Both the position numbers and the translations under genes were made by a program. 64,000 bases of DNA from Entophlyctis helioformis (lineage: Eukaryota > Chytridiomycota > Chytridiomycetes > Chytridiales > Chytriomycetaceae): positions 1 to 64,000 of the forward strand of contig JAHLKH010000094.1 of NCBI GenBank assembly GCA_025526915.1, given 5' to 3'. Below, piece after piece: positions 1 through 53,690 of this stretch (position 1 is the stretch's first letter; each line of letters opens with the position of its first letter). The notes beneath the pieces were generated by a model. The model was not told where the DNA came from, searched no databases, and saw only the letters and a list, made by a program, of their open reading frames with translations.

Positions 1-2173
1 GTAGCGGATGCAGTGGCTGCTGCTGCTGTGCCTATTGCATTGGTTGCCAAAGGAGCCTGGCCAGACGGTGCTGTTGCTGCGCCAGACGGCGTGGCTTGCG
101 TTGCCTTTGCAAGAAATGCAGCGCCACTGCCACCACCAGAGTTGGATCCAGGCCCAGTACTCGATTGTGCCGATGGTCCAGTAGACGGCGGGCCGGCAGA
201 GGTAGGGAATCCTCCAGACGCGTTTGTCACGGTGCCGCCCATTGCTGGGTTGTGACGGCGGCTCGGTGGGGGCTGTGCATATTGGGCCGGCAACGGGAGG
301 CCGGCTAACTGTAGGCCAGGTGGGCTCGTGTTGGATGGCAGCATATGGCCATTCATGGCGGGGATACTGTGGCGTGTACCGGTTGCGAATACAAGTTGTC
401 CTGACGTACTCCAGGCCTGGGCAGACATGGACAACAGCTTTGAAGGCCGATATGCAACAGAATCGACATGCTGCACACAAAACTGGCGATCCTTTGAGCA
501 TGTCCAAAGGATGGATGGATCTCGCCAATACAAGCCTGGTGGTGGATGCAGCAGGGCAAAGCCCCGAGAACGGTCAATCAGTTGAGTGTGAAGGACTCGC
601 AATCAAACGACTGACCTGTTGCGATATTAGTGTGCTCTTCCAACGAGAATTGCGGGACAAACGGCCGTGAGACATCCCAAATGTGGACACGAAAGTCCGT
701 CGACATTGCACATGAAGCGATTTGCAGATCGAACCCGGGCCGCCAGCCGAGACGCGACACAGGCGCAATGGTCTGCACAGTATGGAGCGGCTTGCGACTC
801 TCCGACTTGGTGTCCCACACCTTGATGGCACGGTCACGGCCGCCGCTGGCCAGAAGACGCCCATTGGCATGCCAGTCGATTGAAAGCAGCAGACTGTTGT
901 GTGCGCTCCACTTGCGCTCAAACTGACTCGGATTTCGAATGTCCCACTTTTGGATACTGCCACTCTCAAACGCGGCTGCAAACTCATCGACTGAGATGGG
1001 GTTGAACTGAACGTCACGAACGCTCTCGGCGCGGCCCTCAAAGGTCAGCGCCGATGCACCTTTTGCTCTCAGATCCTGGGCATTAGTGCAAAATCGGACA
1101 CAACAGAGTGAGTAATCGGCAACGCATGCTTTGGCGCACAGCATGGAGGGCATGGATGGCATGGATGGCATACCCAGAGTTTTACAGATCCGTCTTGTGA
1201 TGCAGACAGCAGAATAGGCCTGGATGGATGGAAACACACGCGGTTGACCGCTCTTGAATGCTCGACCAAAACACAGTCTACACGGAACAAACCGGCGAGT
1301 GATCAGCAGTCCCATTGAATGCAGTCGGAGGAGCAACAAGAGGCCAATGCTATGCACGTCTCGTCGTGACGGCAAAGAAAGGACAAACAGCCAGCAAGCA
1401 GTACTGACCCAGCTTGTCTTCCGATGCTCGTTCAAGATCCCACAAAACCACGGCGCCATTGGTAGCGGTTGCAATCACACTCTTTGCGTCTATGGTTGTA
1501 AGCAACCTCGATGTTGTCAGCCTCGCACTGCGCAACCTGTCAACCATGCAGACACCAGTCTCGGGCAGCAGCAAGACTTACATGAGCCAGCCCATCTTAC
1601 GTCGTTGCTGCTGTAGTTTTGGTTCAGCTTGACACCAACGCGAAGGTTGTGGACCTCGCTGATCTCGTCTTGGCCGACACGCAAGATCATGAGCACCTCC
1701 CTGCCGGCCACAACGGCATGTTCGGCATCTGGCGAGGCTGATATGGCACTCGTTGCGCCGTGCAAGGCTGCGGTCATGAGACGTTGGCGACGCTGTTGGT
1801 GCCGATGCGACTGAAATGGATGCTGCTGGTATTGCAGCTGCCCATTCTGGCCAGTCAGCTGGTTGGCTGAAGGGCGCATGAGGGATGCCAATCCAGATGT
1901 TGCTGGCAACGGGACGGCAGAGAGCGCGCTCGTCTGTCCTGGTCCTGGTCCTGGTCCTTGTGTCTTGGTTTGGCTGAAGGATTGCCCAGCATGCACACTG
2001 CCCTGGGTGGTGTTTGTGCTGCTGGTGCTGCTGGTGCTGGCCAGGCCAGATGCCGGCAATGACATTTGCAGGACGCTGGCGTATGACGGAAGGATGGGAG
2101 TCTGTGCGGTGCTGGTGGCCCTGCTGCCAGACATTCCTGCAGATGCCGACGACCCTGACGTTGAACGGTCCAT
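1..2173 (-). CDS. WDR24: WDR24/Rtc1 (Sea2) homologue, SEA/GATOR2 subunit; C-terminus outside window
   Basis: Minus-strand beta-propeller protein of the SEAC/GATOR2 complex, which acts on the vacuole or lysosome surface upstream of TORC1. WD motifs follow each other across several exons: a first blade ending near 1590 (LNQNYSSNDVRW), then IATATNGAVVLWDL (about 1440-1480), CFHPSRPILLSASQDGSVKLW (about 1175-1240), VRDVQFNP with SIQKWDIRNP, and LLASGGRDRAIKVWD (about 800-850). Order and wording match WDR24 closely. A further exon (about 20-555) continues with DPSILWTCSKDRQFCVQH and a Gly/Ser/Pro-rich linker and runs off the window. The N-terminus is low complexity; I chose the ATG at 2173 because upstream codons overlap the divergent MOCS2A gene. 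One splice junction near 1580 does not keep phase, so a missing base or another site is possible. Confidence 0.85.
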
Positions 2174-2195
2174 CACAACGCGGCCAACTTCCACC

Positions 2196-2471
2196 ATGTT
2201 CGTCAAACTGATGTTCTTCGCAAGCGGACGAGAGCTCGCTGGCTGTTCCGAGGACACTCTCGACTTTGCTGGTGTGGAGCAAGTGTCTGTGCCCGAGCTG
2301 TTGGCGGCACTCGAACTGAAGCATCCGGCCTTGGCTCGCATTCTCGGATCCAGCATGTTGGCCGTCAACATGGAGTATGTGGATGCACGGGGCGTCTCGG
2401 ACAATGGCCAGCAAGTGATGGTCCGGCAGGAGGACGAAGTGGCTGTTATCCCGCCTGTCAGCGGCGGATGA
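2196..2471 (+). CDS. MOCS2A: Molybdopterin synthase sulfur carrier subunit (MoaD/MOCS2A)
   Basis: Encodes 91 residues with a ubiquitin-like fold. The protein carries sulfur as a C-terminal thiocarboxylate to the large molybdopterin synthase subunit during molybdenum cofactor synthesis in the cytosol. Visible family features are the N-terminal strand MFVKLMFFASGRELAG, the central ALELKHPAL, and the C-terminal DEVAVIPPVSGG, whose terminal Gly-Gly is the essential feature. The start at 2196 (ACCATG) gives the normal family length; the upstream in-frame extension to 1863 is antisense to WDR24 and not conserved. Intron-less. Its start lies only 22 bp from the proposed WDR24 start on the other strand, implying a very compact shared promoter. 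Confidence 0.92.
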   Translation: MFVKLMFFASGRELAGCSEDTLDFAGVEQVSVPELLAALELKHPALARILGSSMLAVNMEYVDARGVSDNGQQVMVRQEDEVAVIPPVSGG

Positions 2472-2554
2472 GCTTGGATGGTGATGTTGGTCCGTGGCGG
2501 ATAATGAAGACCAACGCATGGCTTGGCCAGCATCTCGCACGATAGTAGCTTCGA

Positions 2555-3118
2555 GTCAGCGGCCAGCATGGCAGGATCGCCGCCGTCTGGCTTGTGTGTC
2601 AAGGAGAGCAACCAGTGTCCAACGAGCAGACACCACAGCGGTAGATCTGTGTGTGCATGATCGTGTCAGTTGGTGGATGGATGGATGGATGGATGGATGG
2701 ATGGATGGCATATCTAGACGCACATGGGCATCTCCAGACGACTGCAGATGCCTGATGAGAGAGTCCTCAGTCACAGTCTGCCAGCCACCTTGGCTTGTAA
2801 AGTCAATGCCGAGTGCCAAGACATTAACGGGAATGTCGCCCTCTGACTGATCGACAGAGTGGCTCTGAGATGCACGAGATGCACGACAGCAAGCACCAAG
2901 CCACGCAGACACACCTTGCACGCATCGCGGCTCTGCATGAAGCCATCCAGTCACGTGCTACTGACGTGACCCGACTGCCACGCAATGATTTCCAACGTCG
3001 ATTGATTCGATCGGCGATTCTCCCAATCGACCTTGCCGGTCACTGAGCAATCTAGGTATGTGCAGTGGCATGCTCGCAGATGCACATCGCCCACTGGCAC
3101 TCCATGCTGGCTGCTGAC
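2555..3118 (+). mobile_element. MITE-like terminal-inverted-repeat element, copy 1
   Basis: This 564-bp non-coding block starts with GTCAGCGGCCAGCATGG (2555-2571) and ends with its near-perfect inverse, CCATGCTGGCTGCTGAC (3102-3118), with one mismatch. Its reverse complement recurs almost identically at 28404-29007. It contains a (TGGA)n microsatellite of about nine units (2674-2708) and two CACGTG-type sites (2950-2970). No open frame encodes a recognisable transposase, so it would be non-autonomous. I see no clear target-site duplication. The right end lies 15-42 bp from the possible starts of the Crinkler-like gene. Confidence 0.75.
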
Positions 3119-3132
3119 CCGACCGCCATGGT

Positions 3133-6100
3133 ATGATACGGTGGCCGATGTCAGCACCGATGGGAAAAAGGAGAGGCGACAAAGGCAACAAGGCGGGCAA
3201 GACCCCACCCGGTGACCACGAGCAGACGGCCTCTTCGTCGGCAACTGGTGCGGCAGTCGCCGTGACTCCAGAACAGCCTCAAGTGCCGAGCATCGAGGTG
3301 CGCTGCCTGTTTGGATAGCAGCCAGCCATGTAGCTGTTCCCACTAACTCCTCCAGCAGGATGACATTGCCCAATCATTGGCGAATCTTAGTTTCGACGAG
3401 ATGAGAGCAGCTGCCATCAAAGCCGCTACTGAAGCTGCCCGTGTCAAAGCCGAAGCTGCCCGTGACAAAGCGAAGCTGCCCGTGACAAAGCCGAAGCTGC
3501 CCGTCTGAGAGAAGAGAATCGGAAGAAGGACTTGGTGATCACCGGGATGCTGTCCTCTGCGGAGCGAGTCCCAAGTCCCAAGGCCCACTCTCAACAAACA
3601 AGTGCCCATGTCTCGCAATCTGTACTCGAAGGATTCACTCAGGCGCTGGTGGACAGGAAGCGTGTTATCCCGACGCTCCTAAACTACATCGACCAAGTCG
3701 CCTCCCTTTGGCCGAAAAAAGCGACGACGTCGTGGATTGCTCCACTCATCATTCTGGTGCAAGGCAGCGGAATGGGCAAGTCTCGTTCCATGCGCGAGGC
3801 CGCGAACCACAAGTTCTCGTTCTATGTCTGTCTCCGAGACCAAGCAGAGAAGGCGTATCCATACCGTAGCGTGATCGCCGACATGTTCGCGCAGACAAAG
3901 CCTCACAAGTTCACATTCGAATGCGTTCGGTTTCTTGCTGGATGCATCGCCCATCTGACGGAGGCGGTCAACAGCAGCATCAAAGAGGCGGATCAGTCAG
4001 GCGACATCAGTCGGCTGCTGACAATGACATCATGGATCAAGCGGCAGATAACCGATGATGGCGGCCGCGTCTTCTGGGGCGAGATTGAAGCCACCATTGG
4101 CAAGCTCGATGACCAAGATGTTTTCAGCAGCCTTCGTCAAGATTCTCCCACAGGATCATCGCCTCAACCCGGTGAGTCCATACAAGATGCTTTGCTCATT
4201 CCATGCTCAACCGTCTTTTTCAAAGTACACTTGCCTCTAACACTTCATTTGACTGTTGGGATGCCTGCTCATGTGACAGTCAATACCAGTCGCACTTCTC
4301 GTAAAGGTGCCATCACTGCAGTGTTCACATCGCTCCTCGATGAGCTCAAGACTGCCCTCCAGCAACTCAGCATCAGCCGCATGTCGGCCTTTGTCAAGAC
4401 GACCGGCGTGAATAAGCTCGAGGAGATCTTTCCGACGCAAAATCTCGCCAGGCGCTTCTTTGCTGCACTGGATACACGCTCATTGATCAAACTTGACACA
4501 ATCCTCAGCAACTCAGCTATGAAAGCCGTTTTCGACGCTCTGCAGCATGGCGGCCACGCAAGACTCGTCGAGGACATGCAATCCTTCAGAATGCATGGCC
4601 GAGCCGCACTCCTGTTCATGTTTGACGAGGTGGCAGCGCTCTTACCGCCAGCTGGTTCTCAACAGCAAGCCAGCGACACCGGCCAAAAGACAGTCAAGTC
4701 ACAGCTGGACCAGCTACGCGAGGTCCTCGGTTGCTTTCCATACTCGGATAACCATGGCGTGGTCTCGATCTGGGCCGACACCAACATGTCCATCACCAAG
4801 ATTGCACCAGTCAGCATCCCACCGGCCAACTCCTTGCGAGCTATAAATGCAAACAGCATTCCCGATCCATTCTGCGGCATCTTTTTCTGGGATCTTGTCC
4901 CTGGCCCCACCACATTCAGCCCTGCACACCAATCCATCAAGGAGGCGTTTGCAGCCAACAAGGAACTTGCGAGCTTTTTCAACAATCTCGATCTTCAAGC
5001 TCGACTCTGGGGGTCACTTCGCATGCTCGGCCGGCCGCTCTGGAGGACGATAGACTCGGATGGTCATGATCGGAGCTTCTCAGGCTTGATCAGCATCGCA
5101 CTTCACAAGATTTGCTGCACCGCCTCTGATCCACACTTGGTCTTGACTGGCAGTTCCAGGGAGGATGCCAAGCTTGCGTACCTCGCATTGGCCAACGCGC
5201 GTCTTTGCCTCAACATTGCAGGCAGCCTCCACTTGACCTCATTGCTGACGGCCAAGCACATGGCCATTTGCACAAACATTAGTGCTCAGCGGGATATGAT
5301 GACGGTTTTCTACCCGTCTGATCCCATTCTTGCCGAGGCAGCAGCATCGGCTCTGAGAGGCAAGGGCGAATACTGGAGTCTGTTCATTGGCCACCTCTCA
5401 ACAGTCATGCAGGACGGATACATGGATGCTGGTGACCGCGGCGAACTTGTGGCTCGCATCTTGCTGTTGATGGCCATGGATGACGCAGCGCAGCGACAGA
5501 ATTCCAATTGTGGCCGCACAATGCCTGTGTCTGTCCGCGTCCTTCTCGAGTCACTGTTTGATGACATCAAGCCCAAGCTGGATGATTATCCTCAAGCCCT
5601 ATCAGCGAATCCTTCCAAAACTCGAGGTATCTCATCATGCATGCACTGGCTGATTTGCACAACTGACACGCTGCATTTCATATCTTGTGCAGGCAGCAAG
5701 GCGAAAGGCGTCATGTCAGCTCAGGAATTTGATCAGCTCATGGGCGGGTTGATCTTTTTCAACCATTTTGCCTACGCGGTCAATGGCCATTTTGATGGCA
5801 TTCTCCAGCAGGCATTTGTGCGCTGTTCTGCCATTTGCTGCCAAGTCGGACAGGCCGCTGTGGATCTTGTCATCCCAGTGTATCTGGCCGAGTCAGACTC
5901 GTTTACGGCGATTCTGATCCAAGTCAAGAACAAGAAGGCGTCAGAATCGCCTTCAAAGGCAGCCTCTATCACGCCAGGCAAGGCAAACATTGGCAAGGAT
6001 GAGACGCACCTTCCATACGTAAGTCTCTTTCTTAGCCTTGGGCAGGAGTCTACGCGTCTTGAGCTTTGCCTGGACAAATCAGAGAAAGAGGTCAGTTGCC

Positions 6101-9950: not shown

Positions 9951-10864
9951 TCACCTGTCCTCGTCCTCTGCAGCATCTGCAAACTGATCGTCTGCCGAAA
10001 CTTGAGCTACAGCGCCTTCGCAGTCGCCATTGGCATCGGCTGGACGCGCTTGGGCTTGAGGATCAGGCTTTGTTGCGACGCCAAAGACAGACTCGAGATG
10101 CGCCAATGCAGCCTGTTCATGTACATGCAGTCAACATACCAGCAGCACGCCAAGGTCATTGCGCGGGTATTACCTGGCCAATCTCGCTCATCTCCAACGC
10201 CTGGGCAGCCTGCGGATCGAACGCCCACTCGGCAGCATCGCCCTCTGCCCCAACGCCCATGCTGTTGTCATCGTCGTCATCGTTGTCCGAGTCTGGATGC
10301 AAGGCTGCACATTCGCAGATTGCCTGGTAAATGTCGTCCACGGACGCTGCATCTGCGGGCACAATCCGCATCTCGCACGGCATCATGTCTTCGTCGTCGT
10401 CGTCGTTGTCGTCTTCGTGCCCGGCATCTTCAGCACGTTGCAAGCTGTCGTCTTGAACCTGGCAGTAGATGCACGGCCCTCCAGCCACAGGATCGCCCTG
10501 CCGAGACAGTGCGTGCATGACAATGCTGCGATAGTCGATCCAGACGGCAACTGGCTTCTCTGGTGCATACCAGATCAGATGGCTGTCGGCAGGCATGGCA
10601 TGTGGTCAGGGTTCGCTCATGCGACTGTGAACGTGGCCGCCTCTGGTACGCATCGCCTGCTTACCTTTCAGCGACGTACAGGTCGCCAACCTCTGGGAGC
10701 TCAGTAGACAGCGCCGGAAGCGGGTCAAAGAGCAGACGGACATTGGCTTGCACATGTCTCACCACCGCCTTGCCTTCTCCAGCAGCAGCCCCAAGGGAAG
10801 TGCTGTTTTCAGCGCCGGCAGTTGCTCTGGAGATCAGGTCGGGCTTGTTCACCGAGACAAACAT
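9951..10864 (-). CDS. CLNS1A: pICln / methylosome subunit (CLNS1A homologue)
   Basis: Chaperone that binds Sm proteins and presents them to the PRMT5 methylosome during snRNP assembly. The first exon (10864 to about 10670) carries the N-terminal PH-like strands and ends in GDLYVAER, continuing after an intron with SHLIWYAPEKP and VWIDYRSIVMHALSR, which match the pICln family. Then come CIYCQVQ, two long Asp/Glu tracts and the conserved EMRIVPADAASVDDIYQAICECAALHPD. A last short exon, ending at 9951, supplies the acidic DDQFADAAEDEDR end. The final intron does not keep phase exactly, so one border is uncertain. The gene is divergent from PPCDC and shares a 230-bp promoter region holding the recurrent TIR/CACGTG module. 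Confidence 0.85.
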
Positions 10865-10895
10865 CTAGGAAAGCGTACCGTACCATGACCCAAGA

Positions 10896-11047
10896 GTCAG
10901 TAGCCGCATGAACGGCCAGTGGACGATGCGTATCCACGAGCATGCCACTTACAAGGTTGTGAGTGTGAAGTCAATGGGTCAGATGGTCGATGTGGAAATC
11001 ATTCAGTGAAAGGCGGGTCACGTCTGTACCACGTGACTGGACGGCAG
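10896..11047. promoter_or_regulatory. Recurrent TIR/CACGTG module between pICln and PPCDC
   Basis: Begins with GTCAGTAGCCGCATG, a variant of the TIR of the 564-bp element. It goes on with CGAGCATGCCACT and GGAAATCATT, both also present in that element, and ends with paired sites GTCACGT and CACGTGACTGG (11017-11040). On the pICln side a GGTACGGTA 9-mer lies just outside the TIR. Its position between two start codons (32 bp to pICln, about 54 bp to PPCDC) suggests a bidirectional promoter. Function is inferred from position and recurrence. Confidence 0.6.
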
Positions 11048-11093
11048 GCCAATCAGCGGCATATTCTCAGCCTTGCCGAATTGCCCAACGATC

Positions 11094-11955
11094 ATGAGTG
11101 TGAACGTGCTGGTCGGCGTCACTGGCAGTGTGGCAAGCATAAAGCTTCCTCTGCTGGTGAGGCACATCAAGGAGACGTTTGCTGTACGTCGCTCAGGTGC
11201 TTGCGCAACATCTCGACAGCCGAGTGGTGGAGAATAGCAACTCACACATGCGGCCATCGTGTGCAGCCAAGCGTGGAGGTCAAGGTCGTTGCCACCAAGC
11301 CGGCACTCCACTTTTTCAACGCGGATGACCTCGGCCCAGCAACACCCCTGCTGACTGATGACGATGAGTGGGCAATGTGGACAAAAATGTCGGATCCGGT
11401 GCTGCACATTGAGGTATGCCGACTCTGGCCAACAGGCAGCATGCATCCTGGCGTGCATGCAGTGCCAGCTCCACAAGGACGGAAACGGCTGACGCCACAT
11501 TGGACAGCTTCGTAACTGGGCAGACGTGTTTGTGGTTGCACCGCTGGATGCCAACACCATGGCAAAGGCAGCCAATGGCTTATGCGACAACTTGCTGGTA
11601 AGATTGTGGGCTGTCTGGCCCACCTTGCGTTGCAGGATAGCATGCACGCTTGAACTGAACACGCTGTGCATTGAAGACGTGTGTGCTGCGCGCTTGGGAC
11701 CAGTCCAAACCAGTGGTCATATGCCCTGCCATGAACACGCACATGTGGACGCATCCATTGACAGCTCGCCACCTGAGTCTCCTCCAGAACGATCTGGGGT
11801 ACATTGTTGTCGATCCCGTGTCAAAGCTGCTCGCATGTGGCGACTTGGGCATGGGCGGCATGGCAGCACCGGCCGACATTGCACTAGCCGCATCGGTGGC
11901 ATACAAGGCGTTTCGATCAGCATCAGCAACAGCAGCCCCTGACTCAGCGGCATGA
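11094..11955 (+). CDS. PPCDC: Phosphopantothenoylcysteine decarboxylase (PPCDC/CoaC, Hal3-like)
   Basis: Flavoprotein that decarboxylates 4'-phosphopantothenoylcysteine to phosphopantetheine in coenzyme A synthesis. Four phase-0 exons fit exactly: 11094-11183, 11267-11413, 11508-11597 and 11677-11955, giving 201 residues. Family features include the N-terminal nucleotide-binding LVGVTGSVASIKLP, the FMN-region WADVFVVAPLDANTMAKAA with GLCDNLL, and the catalytic-loop motif PAMNTHMW, with the substrate-clamp region ACGDLGMGGMAAP near the end. The length is that of single-domain PPCDC and lacks the acidic tail of yeast Hal3. It is transcribed divergently from pICln. The duplicated segment copy A begins only 70 bp after its stop. 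Confidence 0.93.
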
Positions 11956-12025
11956 CCAGCTTCTTATAGAATGGTAGCAAGCAGTGCCATAATACACGTT
12001 CATGGTCACACATCGCGATCGTCGT

Positions 12026-12040
12026 GCAGATGGCCGACAT
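12026..12040 (-). pseudogene. UBC9 5' fragment carried by duplication copy A
   Basis: The minus strand reads ATG TCG GCC ATC TGC (MSAIC), exactly the first five codons of UBC9 at 37226, and then diverges at the edge of the duplicated segment. The UBC9 upstream sequence is present as well. In the new place this start opens a 107-codon frame (12040 to 11717) that runs antisense through the 3' end of PPCDC and resembles nothing I recognise. Confidence 0.85.
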
Positions 12041-12603
12041 TCAAAGTGTTGCCTTGCCCGGTGTGGGGGAAACCGGTTGCCGATGAGATATGGGCCAAGA
12101 CGGCTGCCTGTCTGTCTGGCAGTCTGTCCAGTGGAGCAGCAGCAGCGTGGACAGGACATGCTGGACTCTGCAGGCTCTCTTGGATCTGCCTGCTGGCCAC
12201 GGCTGGCATCCAGCGGGCTGGTGCGACCGGCACAGGCACCTTGCAGAGCGAACGGAGATGCCCGCACTGAGCAGCCGCGTCTGGCATGCACACAGCTTGG
12301 TGGGTTGCTCGCAGACACTGGTCCCAAGCGGCATGCACACACACACACACATACACACATACTGGCTGCCTCCATTGAGCGCGACGAGACCGCCGTGGAA
12401 TCAGCTGGATCCCTCGATGCAGCCACTCCTTCGGCCGCACGACGGCCGTGCATTGTTCCCTCGGCTGCACGCTGACGCCGCGTCTGTGGAGCATTCTTCC
12501 GGGCATTGTTCCAGCGGCTCGTGTGCGGCCGCAGCGCAGCCTGGTTAAATATCGTGCATCTCTGCCTGACTGTCTCGGTCAAGTCAATCGTCCATCAACC
12601 AAC

Positions 12604-13079
12604 ATGTGAGTGTCGCTCGCTGCCTTGCTGGCTCGAGACTCGAGTGCCAGCAGGCTCGTGGCGTTGCTCACCATCCGACACTCACACACACACACAGGTG
12701 CAGAAAGGTCAACTGTAGCAAGTGCGGCAAGCCCACGTGGGCAGGCTGGTAAGGCCGTTGTCGCTGATGCAGCGAGACAGACGGGCAGCGTCGCCAACTG
12801 ACCTTGCTGTGCCTCGTGGCCTGTGTCTCGTGTCTCATGGCCCGTGTCTCGTGTCTCGCGGCTCGATCCACAGCGGCCAACACATCGAGTCGGCGCTCGC
12901 TGACGTCCCCAAGGACCAGCGCTGCACTTGCCCTCGCGACGGCGGCAGGTGAGCATCTCGCTGTCTGTCTGTCTCTCTGCGTGTCTCTGTCTGTCTCTCT
13001 GCGTGTCTCTCGATCCACTGCCCACGGCCCATTCTTGCAACTCACACAAGCTGACACCAGTGGATGCTCTGTCATGTAA
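12604..13079 (+). CDS. Small conserved fungal Cys-rich protein, copy A (start codon split by intron)
   Basis: Four exons fit with exact phases: AT (12604-12605), 12698-12748, 12874-12948 and 13061-13079, encoding 48 residues. The protein begins MCRKVNCSKCGKPTWAGCG and continues with HIESALADVPKDQRCTC. This resembles a family of tiny fungal proteins that share CxxCGKxTWxGCGxH and a later CxC; their function is not known to me. The four Cys plus His could bind zinc. Intron 1 falls inside the start codon, AT|G. The introns carry CA and CTGTCT microsatellites. An almost identical copy lies at 37795-38269. Upstream is the duplicated UBC9 bidirectional promoter. Confidence 0.8.
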
Positions 13080-13294
13080 TGCCATGCAATGCCATGCAAT
13101 GCTGCAGCTGATCCAGCAGTCGCCACTCCACCAGTCGCCACTCCACCACAACAGCCTCCACCACACCGAACCCCTCTCACACACACACAATGAATACCGG
13201 CCTGTCCCTTGATTCATTCCAGATGCACACATAGACCCACTGCAGACCCACTACAGACCCATTGCAGATACACACTCTCCAGACACGCCACTGG

Positions 13295-13890
13295 TCACTG
13301 CTTGTTGCCGCACACAAAGAAGCGCACAGTGCTGGCGATCGGCGTGCGGCACAGAGGACACGCCTTGCAGCCGCCCAGCGAGCCTTCGTCGTCTGAATCC
13401 ACGTCGGACGAGTCGGTGGCAGACTCGGCGCCAGACCCGCCAGATCCGTGCGGCCTGGCAGGCACCAGCTTCTCGATGCATGCGCCGCACACGGCAATGT
13501 GGCCACAAGGAACCAGCACGATGCGCACCGGCTGGATGAGACACACGGCACACATGATCGTGTCCAGGAGTGTGGGCACGGCCGCGACAGGCGATGGTGT
13601 CTCACGCTGCATCGTCGTCGTCTTCTCCTGCTGCTGCGGTTGCTGGTTTGTGCCGTGCGGCTCGCTTCTGGCATCCTCGGTGTCCGTCATGTCCTCGGCC
13701 GCAAGTGCCTGCTCGTGGTGCTCGTTGGTGCACAGATCCAGGCTGGCCAGCTCGTCTGCGATCGTGCGAGACGTGCTTGCGCTGCAGTCAGAGCCATCCG
13801 TTGCCAGTGTCGATGAGGCTGCAGAGAGCAACGGCGATCCCGTGTCGTCAGGGGGCTGGCCGTGAGACGCTTGGACTGCCGTGCCAGGCG
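13295..13890 (-). pseudogene. RING-finger protein, copy A, 5'-truncated
   Basis: The C-terminal half of a C3HC4 RING protein: MCAVCLIQPVRIVLVPCGH, AVCGACIEKL, an acidic Ser/Asp linker, then CKACPLCRTPIASTVRFF, ending in FVCGNKQ. RING domains of this MULAN/IAP-like type usually give E3 ubiquitin ligase activity. The frame is open up to the duplication edge at 13890, where homology to copy B (38501-39688) stops. No ATG-led N-terminal exon is evident beyond the edge; the first inner ATG, at MTDTEDARSEPHG, could still make a short protein with the full RING. It may therefore be a truncated paralogue and not a dead gene. The next gene, an MFS transporter, starts 126 bp away on the other strand. 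Confidence 0.65.
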
Positions 13891-14015
13891 TCGGTGACCG
13901 ACAACGCCCCCTGCGCAACCAACCTTCGGAAGCATCTCCGCTCCGTGTGGCTCAGCTAAAATTCGTTCCGTCATCAATTACTCCCCCCTCGCAACAACTT
14001 GCCCAACACTGCAGC

Positions 14016-24029: not shown

Positions 24030-24197
24030 CTAGTCACGTGAGCTTCACGTGGCAAGCAAGCCACCTTCAAAACTTTTTTGTTCTGACGAGGGCTGCTCAC
24101 GATCGACCCAACGGATCACATTGCAAAGGCTCGTGGATGTGCGTCGTCCACCGGTGGTGCATGCTGGCGGCTGACCCTACGGCCATGGTGTGATTTG
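24030..24197. promoter_or_regulatory. Recurrent TIR/CACGTG module between NAXE and La
   Basis: Read towards NAXE: a GGTGTGATT 9-mer near 24187-24195 (plus-strand reading), the inverted end GCATGCTGGCGGCTGAC (about 24158-24174), and paired sites GTCACGTGA and TCACGTGGC (24033-24053). The TIR side lies 32 bp from the La start and the CACGTG side about 64 bp from the NAXE start, the same polarity and spacing as at pICln/PPCDC. The function is inferred. Confidence 0.6.
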
Positions 24198-24205
24198 CTG
24201 CTCAG

Positions 24206-26006
24206 ATGGCGAGCGACGAGACCAAGACGAACATATTTGTGCAGCTTGCGCACTACCTGGGCAATGCGGCCATCAAGGGCACGATTGCACAGCTCCCAAA
24301 GTCCTTTTCTGGCGCTCCGCTTCTTGCGCAAGGATGTACGTTTGCCTGGCCCTGCTCTGGCCGCAGTGCACTGCGCAATGGCAGGCTGCGGCGCCAATGA
24401 GGTCCATGAATGGCGCCAATGCCGTGCCGAATGCCCTGCCGAATGCCCAGCCATGGATTGGTGAAGCTGATCGCCATGACAGGGTTCCCAATTGCCGACC
24501 TTGCGGCCTTTAAGCGCATGCGCAGCCTCACCAAAAACCCGCAGGACATTGTCGCATCGGCGCAGTTTGTGCCAGGTCTCTTCGAGATCAGCCCCGATGC
24601 CCAGCACATTCGTCGCACCAGAGAGTTTGACGCCGATGCAGTCGTAAACGAGCTCGCCAACTTTGCGCTTGCTGCCGGATATGCCATCGAGGCCACTGGC
24701 TTCGACGACGACGTCTCGACCGCCGAAGTCAGCAGCTACTTTGCTCGCTTTGGCCCTGTAAACCGCACCGTGGCCATGCCAGGATCCACATGGGACTCGA
24801 GAAACAGAGTACGTCAAAGATCAACGCTTTGGACGCAGTGCGGCTTGGCTGACCAGGCAGACGTGGACTCTGAGCAGTCCTCGTTTCTGATCGAGTTTCA
24901 AGGCGTCGACAGCATGGTCAAGGCGCTGGCCGCTTCGCACACGTACGAGGATAGCCATCTGCAAGTGCGCGCTCGCACGTGAGTCTTCCACCGGGTGACT
25001 GTGCGGCAGGAGGCGCCATGACAAGTTTGGCCAGCCGCTGACAAACCTTGCGATATCGGAATCGATGCATGCGCAGTAAGCCAGATGCAGGCGTGCTGCC
25101 CGCCATTGCGGCCGCTGCAAACGCGTTTCCAAAGAACAGGGTTGTGCACTTTGAGATATCATCAGAGCCAGACACTCTCTCCCAGAGCACGCTCAAGGTA
25201 TGCTGGTACCTGGACACGCATGGACTAGAAGTCTCCAGCTTGCTGCTGGACCTCGGCTGACCCGTGGCACAACATTGCAGGCACTGTTTGAGCAATTCTC
25301 AAGCGTGAAGCTTGTCGACTACATCAAGGGGGCACGCTCTGGCCACGTGCAGTTCAAGCAGGCTGTTGCAAAGGACATTGTGAACGTGATTGCACATGCC
25401 GGCGGAGTTCAGGTTCTTGACGAGCCCGTCCGTGTGCGCGCTCTGGAGGGTGAGGAGGAGCGGCTGTACTGGCTGGTGGCGCAGGAGCGCCAAAAGTCAA
25501 TGCCCGCCGGCACGATCGCGGGGCTTCGCGCAGAGGACCTGGCACATGCAGCGCGGTTTTCCAAGGCGGCGATGAAGCTCAAGACGGGCAACATTGCTGG
25601 AAGGCGCGGCCACAAGGGCCGTGATGCAAGCAAGACTGGACTGCGGTACCATCAGGCAGCAATCGCCGGCGGGACGAGCGCCGGCGCACAGGCCATGGCC
25701 ATGGATAGCGACGAGCATGCAGACGACGAGACCCCGTCAAGCCTCGGCGAAAGGGGCACAGCGTCTGACGATGTGGTTCGTGCAGTGCTTGGTGTGCGCA
25801 AGACGCGTCTTGGGTCCGGCAGTCAGTCCAGTGCATCCGTGTCCAAGGCCAAGAGCAAGGCCAAGGCGAAGAAGGGCAAGGCCAAGGGCAAGGGCAAGGC
25901 AGGCAGCAAGGGTGGTGCTGGCCAGCGCGACGGAAGTGGATCTGCCGCTGGAGGCGATGGGATGTCGGGCATGGATGCAATCGAGTCCATGTTTGCCCGG
26001 ATCTGA
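24206..26006 (+). CDS. La-type RNA-binding protein (La motif, RRM, xRRM-like)
   Basis: Binds the 3' oligo-U of RNA polymerase III transcripts and helps their folding and maturation in the nucleus. Exon 1 (from 24206) reads MASDETKTNIFVQLAHYLGN, the start of a La motif, which is completed after an intron by LVKLIAMTGFPIADLAAFKR and DAQHIRRTREF. An RRM-like segment (FDDDVSTAEVSSYFARFGPV) follows, then after two further introns a second RRM-like domain, NRVVHFEISSEPDTL and ALFEQFSSVKLVDYIKGARS, resembling the xRRM of genuine La. The C-terminus is a Lys/Gly/Ala-rich basic tail (about 25850-25960) ending in MDAIESMFARI. The stop TGA overlaps an AATAAA signal. The RRMs are diverged, so La versus LARP7 is not settled. 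A Wss1-like gene follows within 70-100 bp on the same strand. Confidence 0.85.
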
Positions 26007-27425: not shown

Positions 27426-28386
27426 CTACAATGCGGCCGTGTTCCAGATATCGTCGTAATGAGAAAAAAGGCGGCGAAGGCCGCTTGCTTCTAAAGCCAT
27501 TTCATCAACTGTGCGAGGAGGCCGATCCGAGTCTGGGCCGGCTGTCGAACGCATGCGCTCCAGCTTCTGCTCAAACTTTTCCGCCGCCTCGGCATCTCCA
27601 GCCCGCTTTGCACTCTCGACACCAAGCTGCGTTTCCTTTTTGTTGATCTCGGGATAGATGTCGTCGTTGTTCATCCAGTCACCATGGTGGCGTGGGATGA
27701 TGTGGATGTGCACATGGGGCACGGACTGGCCGGCGGCGGGACCGTCTTGGAGCGTGATGGTGAGCGACTCGGCGTTGTACTGCCGCTCGATGGCTTTGGA
27801 TATGGTGTGTGCGCTAAGCATCAGATCTGCAACTTCGTCCGAGGAGAGGTCATTGAAGCGAGCCACGACTCGGCGCGAGATGACGAGAACGTCTGCATGG
27901 TCCGATGGAAATGCACACCAGATCCAGCGCACGGATGGAGCGTGTCAGTCGGCAGTCGGCCCCGCCAGTCTCGCAGGGTTGCAGAAGGAGGCATGTCCGT
28001 GTCCGCACTTACGGCCGCTATTCATGGACAGTCACGGGAGCCGCGGCCCGTTCGGACGAGGGGCGGCGTGCAAGTTGGTCAATACAAGCAACCGACGGCC
28101 ACGACAGAGACACCGCCATCGAAGCTGGCCGCTAGAGGTCTGCTGCTGGACAGATGTGTTGGCGTGTCTCGCAGTGCTTCTGCCCGCTGCATAGCGCCGC
28201 ACACACGGTCGCACGCCATTGAGCCAGCACGCCATTGAGCCAGCACGCCAGACGACGGCCGGCCAAGAGAGGCAAGCGAGAGACTCACGGTACAATGGGC
28301 TTGAGGTTGACGAGGCCAAACGACAGCTTCGACGTGAAGAAGATCTCGCTCGAGCGAATCGGCCACGTTGCAAAGTGGAACGTCAT
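27426..28386 (-). CDS. FHIT: FHIT-like bis(5'-adenosyl)-triphosphatase (HIT family)
   Basis: Hydrolyses Ap3A and related dinucleotides. Exon 1 (28386-28289) encodes MTFHFATWPIRSSEIFF and SKLSFGLVNLKPIVP, matching the FHIT N-terminus. The long last exon contains HADVLVISRRVVARFNDLSS, DEVADLMLSAHTISKAIERQ, LQDGPAAGQSVPHVHIHIIP with the HxHxH histidine triad, and the C-terminal ALEASGLRRLFSHY. The intron between has a good GTGAGT donor, but the acceptor phase does not fit, so either a small exon lies inside (28288 to about 27920) or a base is missing. The start codon lies just 18 bp from the end of the second TIR element, so that element must supply most of its promoter. It converges on WSS1 (stops 86 bp apart). 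Confidence 0.86.
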
Positions 28387-28403
28387 CCTTTGCACAAAGG
28401 AGG

Positions 28404-29007
28404 GTCAGCAGCCAGCATGGAGTGCCAGTGGGCAATGTGCATCTGCGAGCATGCCACTGCACATACCTAGATTGCTCAGTGACCGGCAAGGTCGATTGGG
28501 AGAATCGCCGATCGAATCAATCGACGTTGGAAATCATTGCGTGGCAGTCGGGTCACGTCAGTAGCACGTGACTGGATGGCTTCATGCAGAGCCGCGATGC
28601 GTGCAAGGTGTGTCTGCGTGGCTTGGTGCTTGCTGTCGTGCATCTCGTGCATCTCAGAGCCACTCTGTCGATCAGTCAGAGGGCGACATTCCCGTTAATG
28701 TCTTGGCACTCGGCATTGACTTTACAAGCCAAGGTGGCTGGCAGACTGTGACTGAGGACTCTCTCATCAGGCATCTGCAGTCGTCTGGAGATGCCCATGT
28801 GCGTCTAGATATGCCATCCATCCATCCATCCATCCATCCATCCATCCATCCATCCATCCATCCATCCATCCATCCATCCATCCATCCACCAACTGACACG
28901 ATCATGCACACACAGATCTACCGCTGTGGTGTCTGCTCGTTGGACACTGGTTGCTCTCCTTGACACACAAGCCAGACGGCGGCGATCCAGCCATGCTGGC
29001 CGCTGAC
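28404..29007 (-). mobile_element. MITE-like terminal-inverted-repeat element, copy 2 (inverted relative to copy 1)
   Basis: This 604-bp block is the reverse complement of 2555-3118, bounded by GTCAGCAGCCAGCATGG (28404-28420) and CCATGCTGGCCGCTGAC (28991-29007). The length difference is almost wholly a microsatellite: about 19 CATC units (28813-28888) against about nine in copy 1. Paired CACGTG-type sites lie at 28552-28572. No transposase frame is present. It fills the space between FHIT and VTC1, and a GGTATGATA 9-mer lies just outside its right end (29021-29029). Confidence 0.75.
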
Positions 29008-36535: not shown

Positions 36536-37226
36536 TCAGTCGACGGACCGGTTGGCGGCCGTCTGCCTCTTGATGCGCTCGTCGTAGGCCGCCCGATCCT
36601 TCTTGAACAGCACATATGCGTCCGACTGGGCCGGCGAGTTGGGGTTCGGCTCGTCAAGCAGGCTCTGGATGCCCAGCAGGATCTGCTTGATGGTGATGGC
36701 CGGCTTCCAGTCCTGGTCCTCATTGACGATGGACAGGCAGACGGTGCCAGACGGGTAGACGTTGGGGTGGAACAGCGCCGGCTGGAACTGGCACTTGGGC
36801 GGCTTCTGGGGATAGTCTTCTGGGAAGAACATCTTGAGCTTGAATGTGCCGCCCTCCCATATTGTCCCTGTCTTGCCTGCCACCCAGGCGCCATCCAGGC
36901 GCTGGTCAGCCTGCCTGTACTCCAGCCTGCATGCCATACCTGCGTGCCTGCCTGCACACTTCCATGCCTGTCCGCCTGCTGTCGGACACGCCCTTGTCCG
37001 CCTCCAACTCACCTGGAATGCCAACGTCCCAAATGAGGAGGTTCAGCGAGTTGTCTGGGTTCTTGGCCGGCCTTGCATAGAACCCGAACGCTGTCCGAGC
37101 CAGTGTCAGTGTGCCAGGCGCAGACCAGGCGGATGCTGTGTCCCAGCCAAGCCGCTGTTTCTTACGGTGGTCTTTGCGCCAGAGCTTGCGCTCCTCTGCT
37201 AGTCTGGCTTTGCAGATGGCCGACAT
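36536..37226 (-). CDS. UBC9: SUMO-conjugating enzyme Ubc9 (UBE2I)
   Basis: E2 enzyme that accepts SUMO from the E1 and passes it to substrates. Exon 1 (from 37226) reads [20 protein letters not shown], exon 2 [20 protein letters not shown], and the last exon [20 protein letters not shown] and [20 protein letters not shown] with the HPN motif, then the catalytic Cys in [20 protein letters not shown], ending after [16 protein letters not shown]. The basic N-terminal helix is the Ubc9 hallmark that separates it from ubiquitin E2s. Exons join in phase at the first junction. The first five codons and the promoter are duplicated at 12025, and the duplicated block begins inside this gene's exon 1. 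Confidence 0.94.
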
Positions 37227-39096
37227 TCAAAGTGTTGCCTTGCCCGGTGTGGGGGAAACCGGTTGCCGATGAGATATGGGCCAAGACGGCTGCCTGTCTG
37301 TCTGGCAGTCTGTCCATCGAGCTGGAGCAGCAGCAGCATGGACAGGACATGCTGGACTCTGCAGGCTCTCTTGGATCTGCCTGCTGGCCACGGCTGGCAT
37401 CCAGCGGGCTGGTGCGACTGGCACAGGCACCTTGCAGAGCGAACGGAGATGCCCGCACTGAGCAGCCGCGTCTGGCATGCACACAGCTTGGTGGGTTGCT
37501 CGCAGACACTGGTCCCAAGCGGCATGCACACACACACACACATACACACATACTGGCTGCCTCCATTGAGCGCGACGAGACCGCCGTGGAATCAGCTGGA
37601 TCCCTCGATGCAGCCACTCCTTCGGCCGCACGACGGCCGTGCATTGTTCCCTCGGCTGCACGCTGACGCCGCGTCTGTGGAGCATTCTTCCGGGCATTGT
37701 TCCAGCGGCTCGTGTGCGGCCGCAGCGCAGCCTGGTTAAATATCGTGCATCTCTGCCTGACTGTCTCGGTCAAGTCAATCGTCCATCAACCAACATGTGA
37801 GTGTCGCTCGCTGCCTTGCTGGCTCGAGACTCGAGTGCCAGCAGGCTCGTGGCGTTGCTCACCATCCGACACTCACACACACACACAGGTGCAGAAAGGT
37901 CAACTGTAGCAAGTGCGGCAAGCCCACGTGGGCAGGCTGGTAAGGCCGTTGTCGCTGATGCAGCGAGACAGACGGGCAGCGTCGCCAACTGACCTTGCTG
38001 TGCCTCGTGGCCTGTGTCTCGTGTCTCATGGCCCGTGTCTCGTGTCTCGCGGCTCGATCCACAGCGGCCAACACATCGAGTCGGCGCTCGCTGACGTCCC
38101 CAAGGACCAGCGCTGCACTTGCCCTCGCGACGGCGGCAGGTGAGCATCTCGCTGTCTGCGTGTCTCTCTGGTGTCTCTGTCTGTCTCTCTGCGTGTCTCT
38201 CGATCCACTGCCCACGGCCCATTCTTGCAACTCACACAAGCTGACACCAGTGGATGCTCTGTCATGTAATGCCATGCAATGCAATGCCATGCAATGCTGC
38301 AGCTGATCCAGCAGTCGCCACTCCACCGCGATCTGTCCACCACCACTCCACCACAACAGCCTCCACCACACCGAACCCCTCTCACACACACACAATGAAT
38401 ACCGGCCTGTCCCTTGATTCATTCCAGAGTGCACACACAAACCCACTGCAGACCCACTACAGACCCATTGCAGATACACACTCTCCAGACACGCCACTGG
38501 TCACTGCTTGTTGCCGCACACAAAGAAGCGCACAGTGCTGGCGATCGGCGTGCGGCACAGAGGACACGCCTTGCAGCCGCCCAGCGAGCCTTCGTCGTCT
38601 GAATCCACGTCGGACGAGTCGGTGGCAGACTCGGCGCCAGACCCGCCAGATCCGTGCGGCCTGGCAGGCACCAGCTTCTCGATGCATGCGCCGCACACGG
38701 CAATGTGGCCACAAGGAACCAGCACGATGCGCACCGGCTGGATGAGACACACGGCACACATGATCGTGTCCAGGAGTGTGGGCACGGCCGCGACAGGCGA
38801 TGGTGTCTCACGCTGCATCGTCGTCGCCTTCTCTTGCTGCTGCGGTTGCTGGTTTGTGCCTTGCGGCTCGCTTCTGACATCCTCGGTGTCCGTCATGTCC
38901 TCGGCCGCAAGCGCCTGCTCGTGGTGCTCATTGGTGCACAGATCCAGGCTGGCCAGCTCGTCTGCGATCGTGCGAGACGTGCTTGCGCTGCAGTCAGAGC
39001 CATCCGTCGCCAGTGTCGATGAGGCTGCAGAGAGCAACGGCGATCCCGTGTCGTCAGGGGGCTGGCCGTGAGACGCTTGGACTGCCGTGCCAGGCG
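37211..39096. repeat. Segmental duplication, copy B (probable source)
   Basis: About 1,886 bp aligning with 12025-13890 in the same orientation, 25.2 kb away. Here both edge genes are whole: UBC9 continues to the left and the RING gene to the right. Copy B is therefore the likely donor. Differences include the number of CTGTCT units near 38155 and a CGATCTGTCCACCA insertion near 38327. Confidence 0.92.
37795..38269 (+). CDS. Small conserved fungal Cys-rich protein, copy B (start codon split by intron)
   Basis: Same four-exon structure as copy A: AT (37795-37796), 37889-37939, 38065-38139 and 38251-38269, encoding the same 48 residues starting MCRKVNCSKCGKPTWAGCG. The coding exons show no difference between copies, while introns differ by small indels, which fits either recent duplication or selection on the protein. 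Here the gene is in its ancestral setting, divergent from UBC9 (570 bp between starts) and convergent with the RING gene. The Cys/His pattern could bind one zinc. Role unknown. Confidence 0.8.
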
Positions 39097-39688
39097 ACGC
39101 TGATGCTGATGATCCAGACAAAGTCGAGACAGAAGGTGGTGGACGTGGGGCAGCACGCTGTCGGCGCAAAGGAGGCTCGGTCCACACACCATGAGACCGG
39201 ACAGCGCCTGCACTTGGGGCTGCACTTGGGCTGCACTTGGGCTGCAGGATGGCGACGGATACCAGATGCAGTCGTCGCCAACGCGTGAGACGTCGCATTG
39301 CGCGTTCCTGGTGCCTGGCGGCCGCTGTTTGGACCCGAGGTACCTGAGCGAGACGACGTCGGCAGACGGGGTTGCACCCATGCTGGAGCTGGCCGATTGT
39401 CTCTCGATGTCGGTGTACGCTGCTCGTCTGGCGGAGCATCGCAGTTGTCGGCGGCTTCACGATCCAGAGACAGCTCATGACGACGAGCTGTGGGATGCGA
39501 TGGGTTGCCGCGTGAGACAGAACGACCTTGGTGGCGTGGGCCTGCCTCCGTGTTGGCTGGACGGCCTCCGTGGCGGCCAGACGATCTTGTGGCATGGTTG
39601 GCGGGTCTGCTGCCGCTGCCATGTCGGCGTTACTGCTGAGCAGAAGAGACACGCCAACACCAACACCTTCAACCAGCGTGCGCAACAT
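38501..39688 (-). CDS. C3HC4 RING-finger protein (putative E3 ubiquitin ligase), copy B
   Basis: The longest frame runs from an ATG at 39688 to the stop at 38501 (395 codons), but the N-terminal third is poorly defined and may contain introns. The C-terminal RING is clear: MCAVCLIQPVRIVLVPCGH, AVCGACIEKL, and after an acidic DSSDVDSDDEGSLGGC spacer CPLCRTPIASTVRFF. The unusually long gap between the second and third zinc-ligand groups holds Ser/Asp-rich sequence. RING domains of this kind usually act as E3 ligases. The middle is Ser/Thr/Gln-rich. It diverges from the Pet191 gene across the TIR/CACGTG module at 39755. Copy A lacks everything upstream of 39096. Confidence 0.68.
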   Translation of the reverse strand: MLRTLVEGVGVGVSLLLSSNADMAAAADPPTMPQDRLAATEAVQPTRRQAHATKVVLSHAATHRIPQLVVMSCLWIVKPPTTAMLRQTSSVHRHRETIGQLQHGCNPVCRRRLAQVPRVQTAAARHQERAMRRLTRWRRLHLVSVAILQPKCSPSAAPSAGAVRSHGVWTEPPLRRQRAAPRPPPSVSTLSGSSASASPGTAVQASHGQPPDDTGSPLLSAASSTLATDGSDCSASTSRTIADELASLDLCTNEHHEQALAAEDMTDTEDVRSEPQGTNQQPQQQEKATTMQRETPSPVAAVPTLLDTIMCAVCLIQPVRIVLVPCGHIAVCGACIEKLVPARPHGSGGSGAESATDSSDVDSDDEGSLGGCKACPLCRTPIASTVRFFVCGNKQ

Positions 39689-39738
39689 TTCAGCAAGGCG
39701 GCGTGTTCCAGATCGTCCTTGAAACTGGCCAGCGAGTC

Positions 39739-39856
39739 AAGCCACGGCCCAAGAGTCAGCAGCCTGCATGCACCGTCAGTGTACGATGCACAGCTATGGG
39801 GATCCACATGCAAGTGCGTGGCTGTCGGATCACGTGATGTGACACGTGACTGGATG
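39739..39856. promoter_or_regulatory. Recurrent TIR/CACGTG module between RING gene and Pet191
   Basis: CCCAAGA then GTCAGCAGCCTGCATG (from 39755) match the module upstream of pICln (CCCAAGAGTCAGTAGCC at 10889). Paired sites ATCACGTGA and CACGTGACTGGATGG lie at 39829-39857. A weak form of the outer 9-mer (GGCTTGACT on the minus strand) is present. The CACGTG end is about 60 bp from the Pet191 start, as at PPCDC and NAXE. Function inferred. Confidence 0.6.
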
Positions 39857-39912: not shown

Positions 39913-40432
39913 ATGCCGTCCTGCCAGCGCTTCTTTGACGAGTTTGCACAGTGCCTCATGGCATCCGAGTGTGTCCGCTCGTACGGCAAGCGGCCGCAAG
40001 AGTGCGTCGAGTCGCTGCTCAAGGCCAAGCTGTATGACCGCTGGCAAAAGAACCCGGCCACTGTGCCCCCGGGCGGCATTGCCATCCCAGAGCCAGAGCC
40101 GTTTGCCCCTGTTGAATGTGCCGTGTCGCATCAGTCATACATGGAGTGCAAGATTCACCTGGTGAGAGTCGCTGGACTGGTGGCTGGCTGCTCAGCCGAT
40201 GGCTGGCTGGTCGACTGCTGTCTGCTGTCTGCTGGCTGCTGGCTGATGGCTGATGGCTGGCTCGCCAACCGACCTTGCCATGCAGATGAACCCGCGCAAG
40301 AGATTCCGCACGCCGTATGGTGGCGCTCCACCCAAGCACGGAGAGCATGTGTTCAACGACGATCTTGGGGCGGAGGCAGCAGAACAAGAGCGGCTCGAGC
40401 AGGAGCAGTATGCGAAGCAATACAAAAAGTGA
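39913..40432 (+). CDS. PET191: Pet191/COA5-like cytochrome c oxidase assembly factor with an insertion
   Basis: CHCH-type protein of the mitochondrial intermembrane space needed for complex IV assembly. Exons 39913-40161 and 40286-40432 give 131 residues. The N-terminus MPSCQRFFDEFAQCLMASEC and VRSYGKRPQEC has the family spacing C-x9-C-x5-C-x10-C. The second half shows C-x9-C (CAVSHQSYMEC) and, after the intron, NPRKRFRTPYGG, which corresponds to the MRKRFRG motif of Pet191. Between the two halves lies a stretch of about 35 residues rich in Pro and Lys/Glu that ordinary Pet191 proteins lack. A Glu/Gln-rich tail ends the protein. The start is the first ATG after the promoter module. Confidence 0.86.
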
Positions 40433-53585: not shown

Positions 53586-53690
53586 GGATGGCCGCACCGT
53601 GGCATCGGCTGCTTGGACCCTGGCCGCTCTCCTTGACACACTCGCCAGACGGCGACGATCCAGCCACGCCAGAGCACCTCAACAGCATCG
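53586..53690 (+). repeat. Partial, diverged copy of the TIR element (microsatellite-side half)
   Basis: CCGCTCTCCTTGACACACTC, GCCAGACGGCGACGATCCAG and CCACGCC match the right part of the element at 28945-29000 with a few changes. A GGGCATGATA sequence, similar to the GGTATGATA found outside other copies, follows at about 53692. The SGNH-hydrolase start is 74 bp further. Confidence 0.65.

What the first reader, a model, noticed from the sequence alone, without database searches (positions are those of the whole stretch)
10885..11094. A recurrent bidirectional promoter-like module with fixed polarity between unrelated gene pairs
Three unrelated divergent pairs (pICln/PPCDC, RING/Pet191, NAXE/La) share a compact module: a GTCAGC..GCATG end facing one gene and paired CACGTG-type sites facing the other. 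The spacing is similar each time: 32, 67 and 32 bp from the GTCAGC end to one start codon, and 54-64 bp from the CACGTG end to the other. Two more full copies (2555-3118 and 28404-29007) place the GTCAGC end 15-42 and 18 bp from the Crinkler-like and FHIT starts. The recurrence suggests a mobile or strongly conserved bidirectional promoter unit in this genome. I know of no described fungal promoter class with this layout.
Basis: partly seen in the sequence, partly recalled or inferred. Interest (0 to 1): 0.85.

Follow-up and report, generated by a model that had tools for sequence, protein, structure and literature searches.

The report
Shared promoter module of a chytrid
In the genome of one chytrid fungus, many unrelated genes carry close copies of the same long DNA block, usually with paired protein-binding sites at a set distance, just in front of their start codon, which looks like a shared promoter that is sometimes copied from gene to gene.

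Summary
The genome (Entophlyctis helioformis by a 100% protein match) holds 1009 near-matches to the 16-base core against 87 for the reversed pattern. Sampled copies have an ~88-bp conserved block (box1), a loosely conserved spacer, then usually CACGTG E-boxes, paired at 10-12 bp pitch. Polarity is fixed: outward coding begins at the GTCAGC side in 53 of 61 copies, with the called start codon 9-60 bp away in 36 of 53 (control 12 of 53). The other side is not fixed: 3 of 34 right starts lie 40-80 bp from the E-box, and only 40 of 61 right genes diverge. So it is mainly a start-proximal promoter module of ONE gene, often shared with a divergent neighbour. A decayed spacer and lack of clear subfamilies favour selected regulatory DNA, sometimes copied between promoters, over a plain transposon, which is not excluded. 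A 3-bp periodicity in box1 (a 15-codon upstream reading frame on the gene strand) is unexplained; indel lengths argue against coding. No expression data and no related genome were available.

The parts
10871..10954 (+). Focal copy, box1; GTCAGC-type end faces the minus-strand gene starting at 10864
   Evidence: profile hit E 5.6e-21; sequence
11019..11035 (.). Focal copy, E-box pair CACGTC/CACGTG, 11 bp pitch
   Evidence: sequence read; CACGTG at 11030
11049..11053 (+). CCAAT word on the side of the plus-strand gene starting at 11094
   Evidence: sequence read
39727..39813 (+). Copy E, box1, facing the minus-strand RING gene (start 39688)
   Evidence: profile hit E 1.8e-17; RING by Pfam
39831..39848 (.). 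Copy E, E-box pair, 12 bp pitch; Pet191 start at 39913
24129..24200 (-). Copy D, box1, facing the plus-strand frame starting at 24206
   Evidence: profile hit E 4.1e-14; frame
24035..24051 (.). Copy D, E-box pair, 11 bp pitch
3064..3146 (-). Copy A, box1, facing the plus-strand frames starting at 3133/3148
   Evidence: profile hit E 1.5e-21; frames
2952..2957 (.). Copy A, E-box (one canonical; partner reads CACGTC)
28384..28458 (+). Copy B, box1, facing the minus-strand FHIT-like gene (start 28386)
   Evidence: profile hit E 1e-16; FHIT by PDB sequence search
28565..28570 (.). Copy B, E-box (one canonical; partner reads CACGTC)
28636..28926 (+). High-copy dispersed repeat (R) inside composite B; the same repeat lies inside A at about 2636-2886
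   Evidence: query part 257-547 matches many other places at about 80% (69 rows, 40 of 278 candidates scored)
28923..28996 (-). Box T at the inverted end of composite B (in A: 2566-2639, +); a lone box T lies at 53596-53669(-)

Best explanation
It is a start-proximal promoter module present in roughly 900 copies in a chytrid genome. Shown: box1 (~88 bp) sits just upstream of the start codon of the gene on its GTCAGC side, in one orientation; E-boxes, paired at 10-12 bp pitch in most copies, begin about 165 bp from box1's gene-side end, behind a poorly conserved spacer; the genes served are unrelated. Inferred: two bHLH dimers bind the E-box pair side by side, about one helical turn apart, and drive transcription that starts in the spacer or in box1, so that box1 is core promoter and/or 5' leader of the GTCAGC-side gene; where the next gene diverges, the same E-boxes (with a CCAAT word in a minority) may serve it too. 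Copies are now and then spread by ectopic duplication or gene conversion between intergenic regions and then held near one consensus by selection.
For: 1009 places against 87 in the reversed control. Meta-profile of 65 copies: outward coding begins at the GTCAGC edge, on the far side only after 250-400 bp. Left gene diverges in 53 of 61, 23 of 27 in the subset chosen only by the 16-mer. Called start 9-60 bp from GTCAGC in 36 of 53, control inside genes 12 of 53. E-boxes: two or more in 41, one in 15, none in 10 of 66; none in 62 of 66 on the other side; first at median 165 bp (quartiles 158-172); pitch 12, 11 or 10 bp in 33, 6 and 5 of 44 gaps. On contigs C1-C22, 13 of 22 exact core words have a perfect pair 112-162 bp away on the expected side, 0 of 22 on the other. 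Box1 is about 83% conserved per column and 73% identical pairwise, while the spacer aligns only moderately better than shuffled sequence (8.0 against 4.8, sd 2.0), as expected if box1 and E-boxes are constrained.
Against: No expression, binding or comparative data. 10 of 66 copies lack a canonical E-box. 5 of 61 left flanks call the opposite strand and 3 are unclear. In 17 of 53 the called start is outside 9-60 bp, and start calls are heuristic. The spacer is still alignable above chance, and a few copies (focal copy, C150:42001, C72:24843) share it closely, which fits common descent of the whole block. Many copies were chosen by similarity or by the exact 16-mer, which inflates conservation.
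Confidence: 0.6

Rival explanations
1. A dispersed short transposable element (MITE- or SINE-like, perhaps ~340 bp, box1 at one end, box T at the other) inserted upstream of many genes; the copies are mostly decaying, some exapted as promoters, as mouse RSINE1 did with its E-box pair.
For: Hundreds of dispersed copies; recent copying to new places in three groups; box T often follows in the same orientation; two of the three groups begin at about the same box1 column (12) by BLAST; star-like relations without clear subfamilies also fit one old burst.
Against: One orientation and 9-60 bp from start codons is unusual for insertions; box1 and spacer should decay alike but do not; the third group begins near column 28 and the right edges of the three groups all differ: after box T, beyond 1.4 kb, at an inverted box1 end. 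Target-site duplications were not seen by eye in A and B, but no systematic search was made.
Confidence: 0.25
2. A strictly bidirectional promoter unit with fixed distances to both starts.
For: Both neighbours diverge in 35 of 61 copies against 11% at random points; spacing fits on both sides in the three window pairs; some loci hold two facing box1 copies around shared E-boxes.
Against: The right neighbour runs the other way in 15 of 61 and is unclear in 6; right start 40-80 bp from the E-box in 3 of 34; on C1 two copies in the same orientation lie 3.2 kb apart in front of two genes.
Confidence: 0.07
3. Box1 is conserved because it encodes a 15-codon upstream reading frame (MLADVRRPLAVHAGC) in the 5' leader, a translational switch shared by many mRNAs.
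For: Conservation has period three in columns 39-73 (p 0.00025 in 34 copies; p 0.002 in 61 overlapping copies); frame intact in 29 of 61; synonymous share 0.46 against 0.36 expected; in-frame ATG upstream of the stop in 46 of 61, against 13 and 36 in the other two registers.
Against: Only 3 of 14 length changes are multiples of three, among 57 matches; in-frame stops not rarer than in column shuffles (0 of 45 against 0.8 expected), and 3 of 34 have one; the opposite strand shares the same third positions and gives 0.43 against 0.35; no evidence that box1 is transcribed.
Confidence: 0.08

Closest known systems
Tandem E-box (E1-E2) elements bound by CLOCK:BMAL1 (PMC3043000, passages read)
   Same: Two E-boxes with a short fixed spacer (there 6 or 7 bp; here mostly 6, also 5 and 4), about one helical turn apart, where two bHLH dimers bind together in a spacing-dependent way.
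   Different: No 88-bp companion block, no fixed place before start codons, an animal clock factor; the binding protein here is unknown and was not searched for.
RSINE1-derived circadian enhancers of mouse (PMC8240256, passages read)
   Same: A dispersed repeat that carries an E-box pair 6 bp apart and supplies regulatory sites to many loci; star-like copy relations.
   Different: There the E-boxes matured after insertion and only a subset of copies is bound; here most sampled copies have canonical E-boxes and sit in one orientation at gene starts.
Divergent-pair (bidirectional) promoters of fungi with CCAAT and E-box words (from general knowledge)
   Same: Short intergenic region between divergent genes, E-box and CCAAT words.
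Short dispersed elements (MITEs, SINEs; from general knowledge)
   Same: Hundreds of related copies, some recently copied.
   Different: No common right end among recent copies, conservation concentrated in blocks, fixed place relative to starts.

Membership tests
Bidirectional promoter | Lies between two divergently transcribed genes | tested here: inconclusive
   both diverge in 35 of 61 copies, right gene opposite in 15, unclear in 6; random points 11%
Bidirectional promoter | Drives transcription both ways | not testable with these tools
   no expression data
   left 36 of 53 within 9-60 bp, right 3 of 34 within 40-80 bp
MITE/SINE-type transposable element | Defined ends shared by copies | tested here: inconclusive
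   recent groups: left edge near column 12 in two, near 28 in the third; right edges all differ
MITE/SINE-type transposable element | Target-site duplications | not tested
   only looked at by eye in copies A and B
MITE/SINE-type transposable element | Even decay along the element | tested here: not met
   box1 0.83 mean column conservation with variance 7.6 times binomial; spacer barely above shuffled; part of the unevenness is ascertainment by the 16-mer
Tandem E-box element of the E1-E2 type | Two E-boxes with a 6-7 bp spacer | tested here: met
   spacer 6 in 33, 5 in 6, 4 in 5 of 44 gaps
Tandem E-box element of the E1-E2 type | Cooperative binding by bHLH dimers | not testable with these tools
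   no binding data
Conserved-peptide uORF | Reading frame kept through length changes | tested here: not met
   3 of 14 length changes are multiples of three
Conserved-peptide uORF | Third-position variability | tested here: met
   0.91, 0.78, 0.68 by codon position, p 0.00025; strand not resolved
Structured RNA | Consensus fold with covariation | tested here: not met
   no consensus fold on either strand, single-sequence energies equal to shuffles; no Rfam match in the window
Footprint of a long C2H2 zinc-finger array | Genome encodes a tandem array of many fingers | tested here: inconclusive
   47 fingers listed, at most two adjacent; 150 of 166 candidates scored and weak fingers are missed

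The most novel reading that the evidence does not exclude
One promoter-plus-leader cassette is copied from gene to gene in this fungus, so that some 900 unrelated genes share both an E-box pair and one ~88-bp leader whose 3-periodic core is a 15-codon upstream reading frame: a joint transcription and translation switch installed by ectopic copying.
Probability: 0.1. Interest if true: 0.9.

Novelty: new variant of a known kind. Interest (0 to 1): 0.6.

Why it matters
A promoter element of this length and copy number with one fixed place before start codons did not turn up in seven full-text searches (open-licence papers only). If confirmed it opens gene regulation in chytrids to direct test and gives a natural case of one promoter spread to hundreds of unrelated genes.

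Tried and rejected
Structured RNA: no consensus fold on either strand; no Rfam match and no tRNA in the window. Terminal inverted repeats of an ~8 kb transposon: inverted box1 pairs on C472, C475 and C150 looked like this at first, but the 7-kb segment between them carries a WD40-type frame (read by eye), its flanks recur in swapped combinations, and the other rows listed show no such pairing. Conserved peptide: periodicity yes, frame retention no. Long zinc-finger array: none seen. Functional regulon: of 30 left-gene exons given to Pfam (30 of the 48 listed), 22 matched at E<=0.001, all in different families, 2 of the 22 only below the curated cut-off (L075, L088), 8 had no match. Unbiased stretch: 50 kb of contig C60 had no box1 hit at E<=0.01, against five in the 64-kb window, so density is patchy or the window is rich. 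Of 30 loci fetched for the exact 16-mer, 29 had a box1 profile hit at that place; L050 did not. Loci for the places with one or two mismatches were not fetched, so 'about 900 copies' (1009 minus 87) is an extrapolation.

Rows dropped before counts: 104 profile hits became 73 distinct, 65 with enough flank; 5 duplicates and hits under 24 bits were left out for the 66; one copy per recent-duplicate group was kept for the 61; the 61 are a different set (duplicates, weak hits and short flanks left out). Copies in facing pairs (L038, L053, L062, L065, L073) count once each although they share an intergenic region. In one search, 9 near-identical strings of the 43 standard-length matches were left out, leaving 34. 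In one search, 22 box1 places and 61 E-box-pair places (17 of them of a separate GATC-spaced type) on C1-C22 were entered by hand. About half of the copies were chosen by the exact 16-mer, which inflates conservation there; the 35 of 61 not so chosen give the same codon-position pattern.

Full report
What was checked. The words GTCAGC and CACGTG are no more common in the window than chance (69 against 74 expected, 17 against 35), but the longer module is real. Self-comparison of the window finds five related copies, and a profile built from 22 aligned sequences less two (window copies included) scores them at E 4e-14 to 1.5e-21.

Where it comes from. A window protein is 100% identical to a hypothetical protein of Entophlyctis helioformis, a chytrid. 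The assembly has 29.57 Mb in 482 contigs and the window is C94:1-64000.

How common it is. The 16-base core with up to two mismatches has 1009 places (481 plus 528); the reversed pattern has 87. Of the 30 loci fetched for exact matches, 29 have a box1 profile hit at that place, L050 does not. The excess of about 920 is therefore likely to be mostly true copies, but places with mismatches were not fetched. The 50 kb of C60 that I could fetch had none.

Anatomy. Box1 is 88 columns with mean conservation 0.83 and very uneven columns. The spacer that follows aligns only moderately better than shuffled sequence (mean score 8.0 against 4.8). E-boxes follow, the first at a median of 165 bp from the start of box1: two or more in 41, one in 15, none in 10 of 66 copies; on the other side 62 of 66 have none and farther right 64 of 66 have none. 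Successive E-boxes are 12 (33), 11 (6) or 10 (5) bp apart. Beyond them 17 of 56 copies have CCAAT within 130 bp (6 have ATTGG), and a minority have a second conserved block, box T, mostly in the same orientation. A count on contigs C1-C22 agrees: 13 of 22 exact core words have a perfect E-box pair 112-162 bp away on the expected side, 0 of 22 on the other. Genome-wide the E-box pair pattern has 275 plus 272 places (the strands overlap) against 3 plus 2 for the reversed pattern, but some belong to a separate GATC-spaced type.

Relation to genes. With a codon-usage score trained on seven window frames, the outward coding signal begins at the GTCAGC edge and on the far side only after 250-400 bp (65 copies). 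Per copy: left gene diverges 53, opposite 5, unclear 3; right gene diverges 40, opposite 15, unclear 6; both diverge 35 of 61, against 11% of 600 random points. Among the 27 copies left from the 16-mer sample the left figure is 23. The called start lies 9-60 bp from GTCAGC in 36 of 53, against 12 of 53 for the same call made inside the genes; on the right 3 of 34 lie 40-80 bp from the E-box. So polarity and spacing belong to one gene. The start calls are heuristic, without gene models or transcripts.

Which genes. Of 30 left-gene exons given to Pfam (of 48 listed), 22 matched, all to different families: ion channel, M24 peptidase, radial spoke head, glutathione synthase, V-ATPase AC39, Sac domain, phospholipase/carboxylesterase, Erv1/Alr, IFT140 propeller, Med21, mitochondrial carrier and others; two of the 22 are below cut-off. 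No common function is visible.

How it spreads. Apart from a few groups, copies show no clear subfamilies: similarity in box1 does not predict similarity in the spacer (r 0.08; 44 of 500 permutations as high), though a few copies, the focal one among them, share their spacers closely. The exceptions are instructive. Two promoters 3.2 kb apart on C1 share a block 99.5% alike over 189 bp and 88.5% over 340 columns in all, in front of different frames, one a mitochondrial carrier, the other without a Pfam match. Three copies on C35 and C9 share over 1.4 kb at 93-95%. Window copies A and B share 611 columns, inverted. The left edge is near box1 column 12 in two groups by BLAST and near 28 in the third; the right edges differ altogether. 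I read this as ectopic duplication or gene conversion rather than one transposon with fixed ends, but the shared left edge of two groups speaks for the transposon reading and the cases are few.

An unexplained feature. Conservation inside box1 has a period of three in columns 39-73 (0.91, 0.78, 0.68; p 0.00025 in 34 copies; p 0.002 in the overlapping 61-copy set; no periodicity in columns 1-28, p 0.73). On the gene strand this frame reads ATG...TGA, 15 codons plus stop, intact in 29 of 61 copies, and substitutions in it are more often synonymous than expected (0.46 against 0.36). But only 3 of 14 length changes among 57 matches are multiples of three, stops are not avoided beyond chance, and the other strand shares the third positions (0.43 against 0.35). 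A DNA-binding array that reads triplets would also give period three (my inference), but no long C2H2 array turned up. I leave it open.

Mechanism. Shown: position, polarity, order, E-box pitch, gene diversity. Inferred: cooperative binding of two bHLH dimers at the pair, by analogy with E1-E2 elements, where spacers of 6 or 7 bp are preferred and binding depends on spacing (PMC3043000, passages); transcription starting between the E-boxes and the start codon; box1 as core promoter and/or leader. Mouse RSINE1 shows that a dispersed repeat can carry such a pair (PMC8240256, passages). Seven full-text searches for the species or genus, with or without 'promoter', and for chytrids or fungi with bidirectional promoter, E-box, cis-regulatory motif, promoter motif and mobile promoter showed nothing on this in the rows and abstracts listed; searches list only the first 10 of about a thousand and 745 papers.

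Noticed in passing
window 1-3146; L010 (C150:60200-68706), L009 (C472), L011 (C475): A ~7-kb segment with a WD40-type frame is bounded by inverted copies of composite A; it recurs in four contigs in part or whole at about 98%, with flanks in swapped combinations, as if the segment inverts by recombination between the arms, or as an assembly ambiguity.
   Followed up: partly
window 12025-13897 and 37211-39103: A ~1.9-kb direct duplication, 97.9% identical, 25 kb apart in the same orientation.
   Followed up: no
C2:179307/185700, C3:172072/178523, C14:145594/152065, C22:105551/111965: A different E-box pair, TCACGTGGATCACGTGAC, occurs in couples 6.4-6.5 kb apart, perhaps the LTRs of a retrotransposon.
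   Followed up: no
window 28636-28926 and about 2636-2886: A high-copy dispersed repeat (278 first-look candidates, 40 scored) lies inside composites A and B.
   Followed up: partly
L055, L056, L064 (C35 and C9): Three module copies with over 1.4 kb of shared right flank, including a frame that by eye resembles a PD-(D/E)XK nuclease; not tested.
   Followed up: partly
L038, L053, L065, L073: Intergenic regions with two box1 copies facing each other around the same E-boxes, as if each divergent gene had its own box1.
   Followed up: partly
window 53596-53669(-): A box T without a box1 profile hit nearby, so box T also occurs alone.
   Followed up: no
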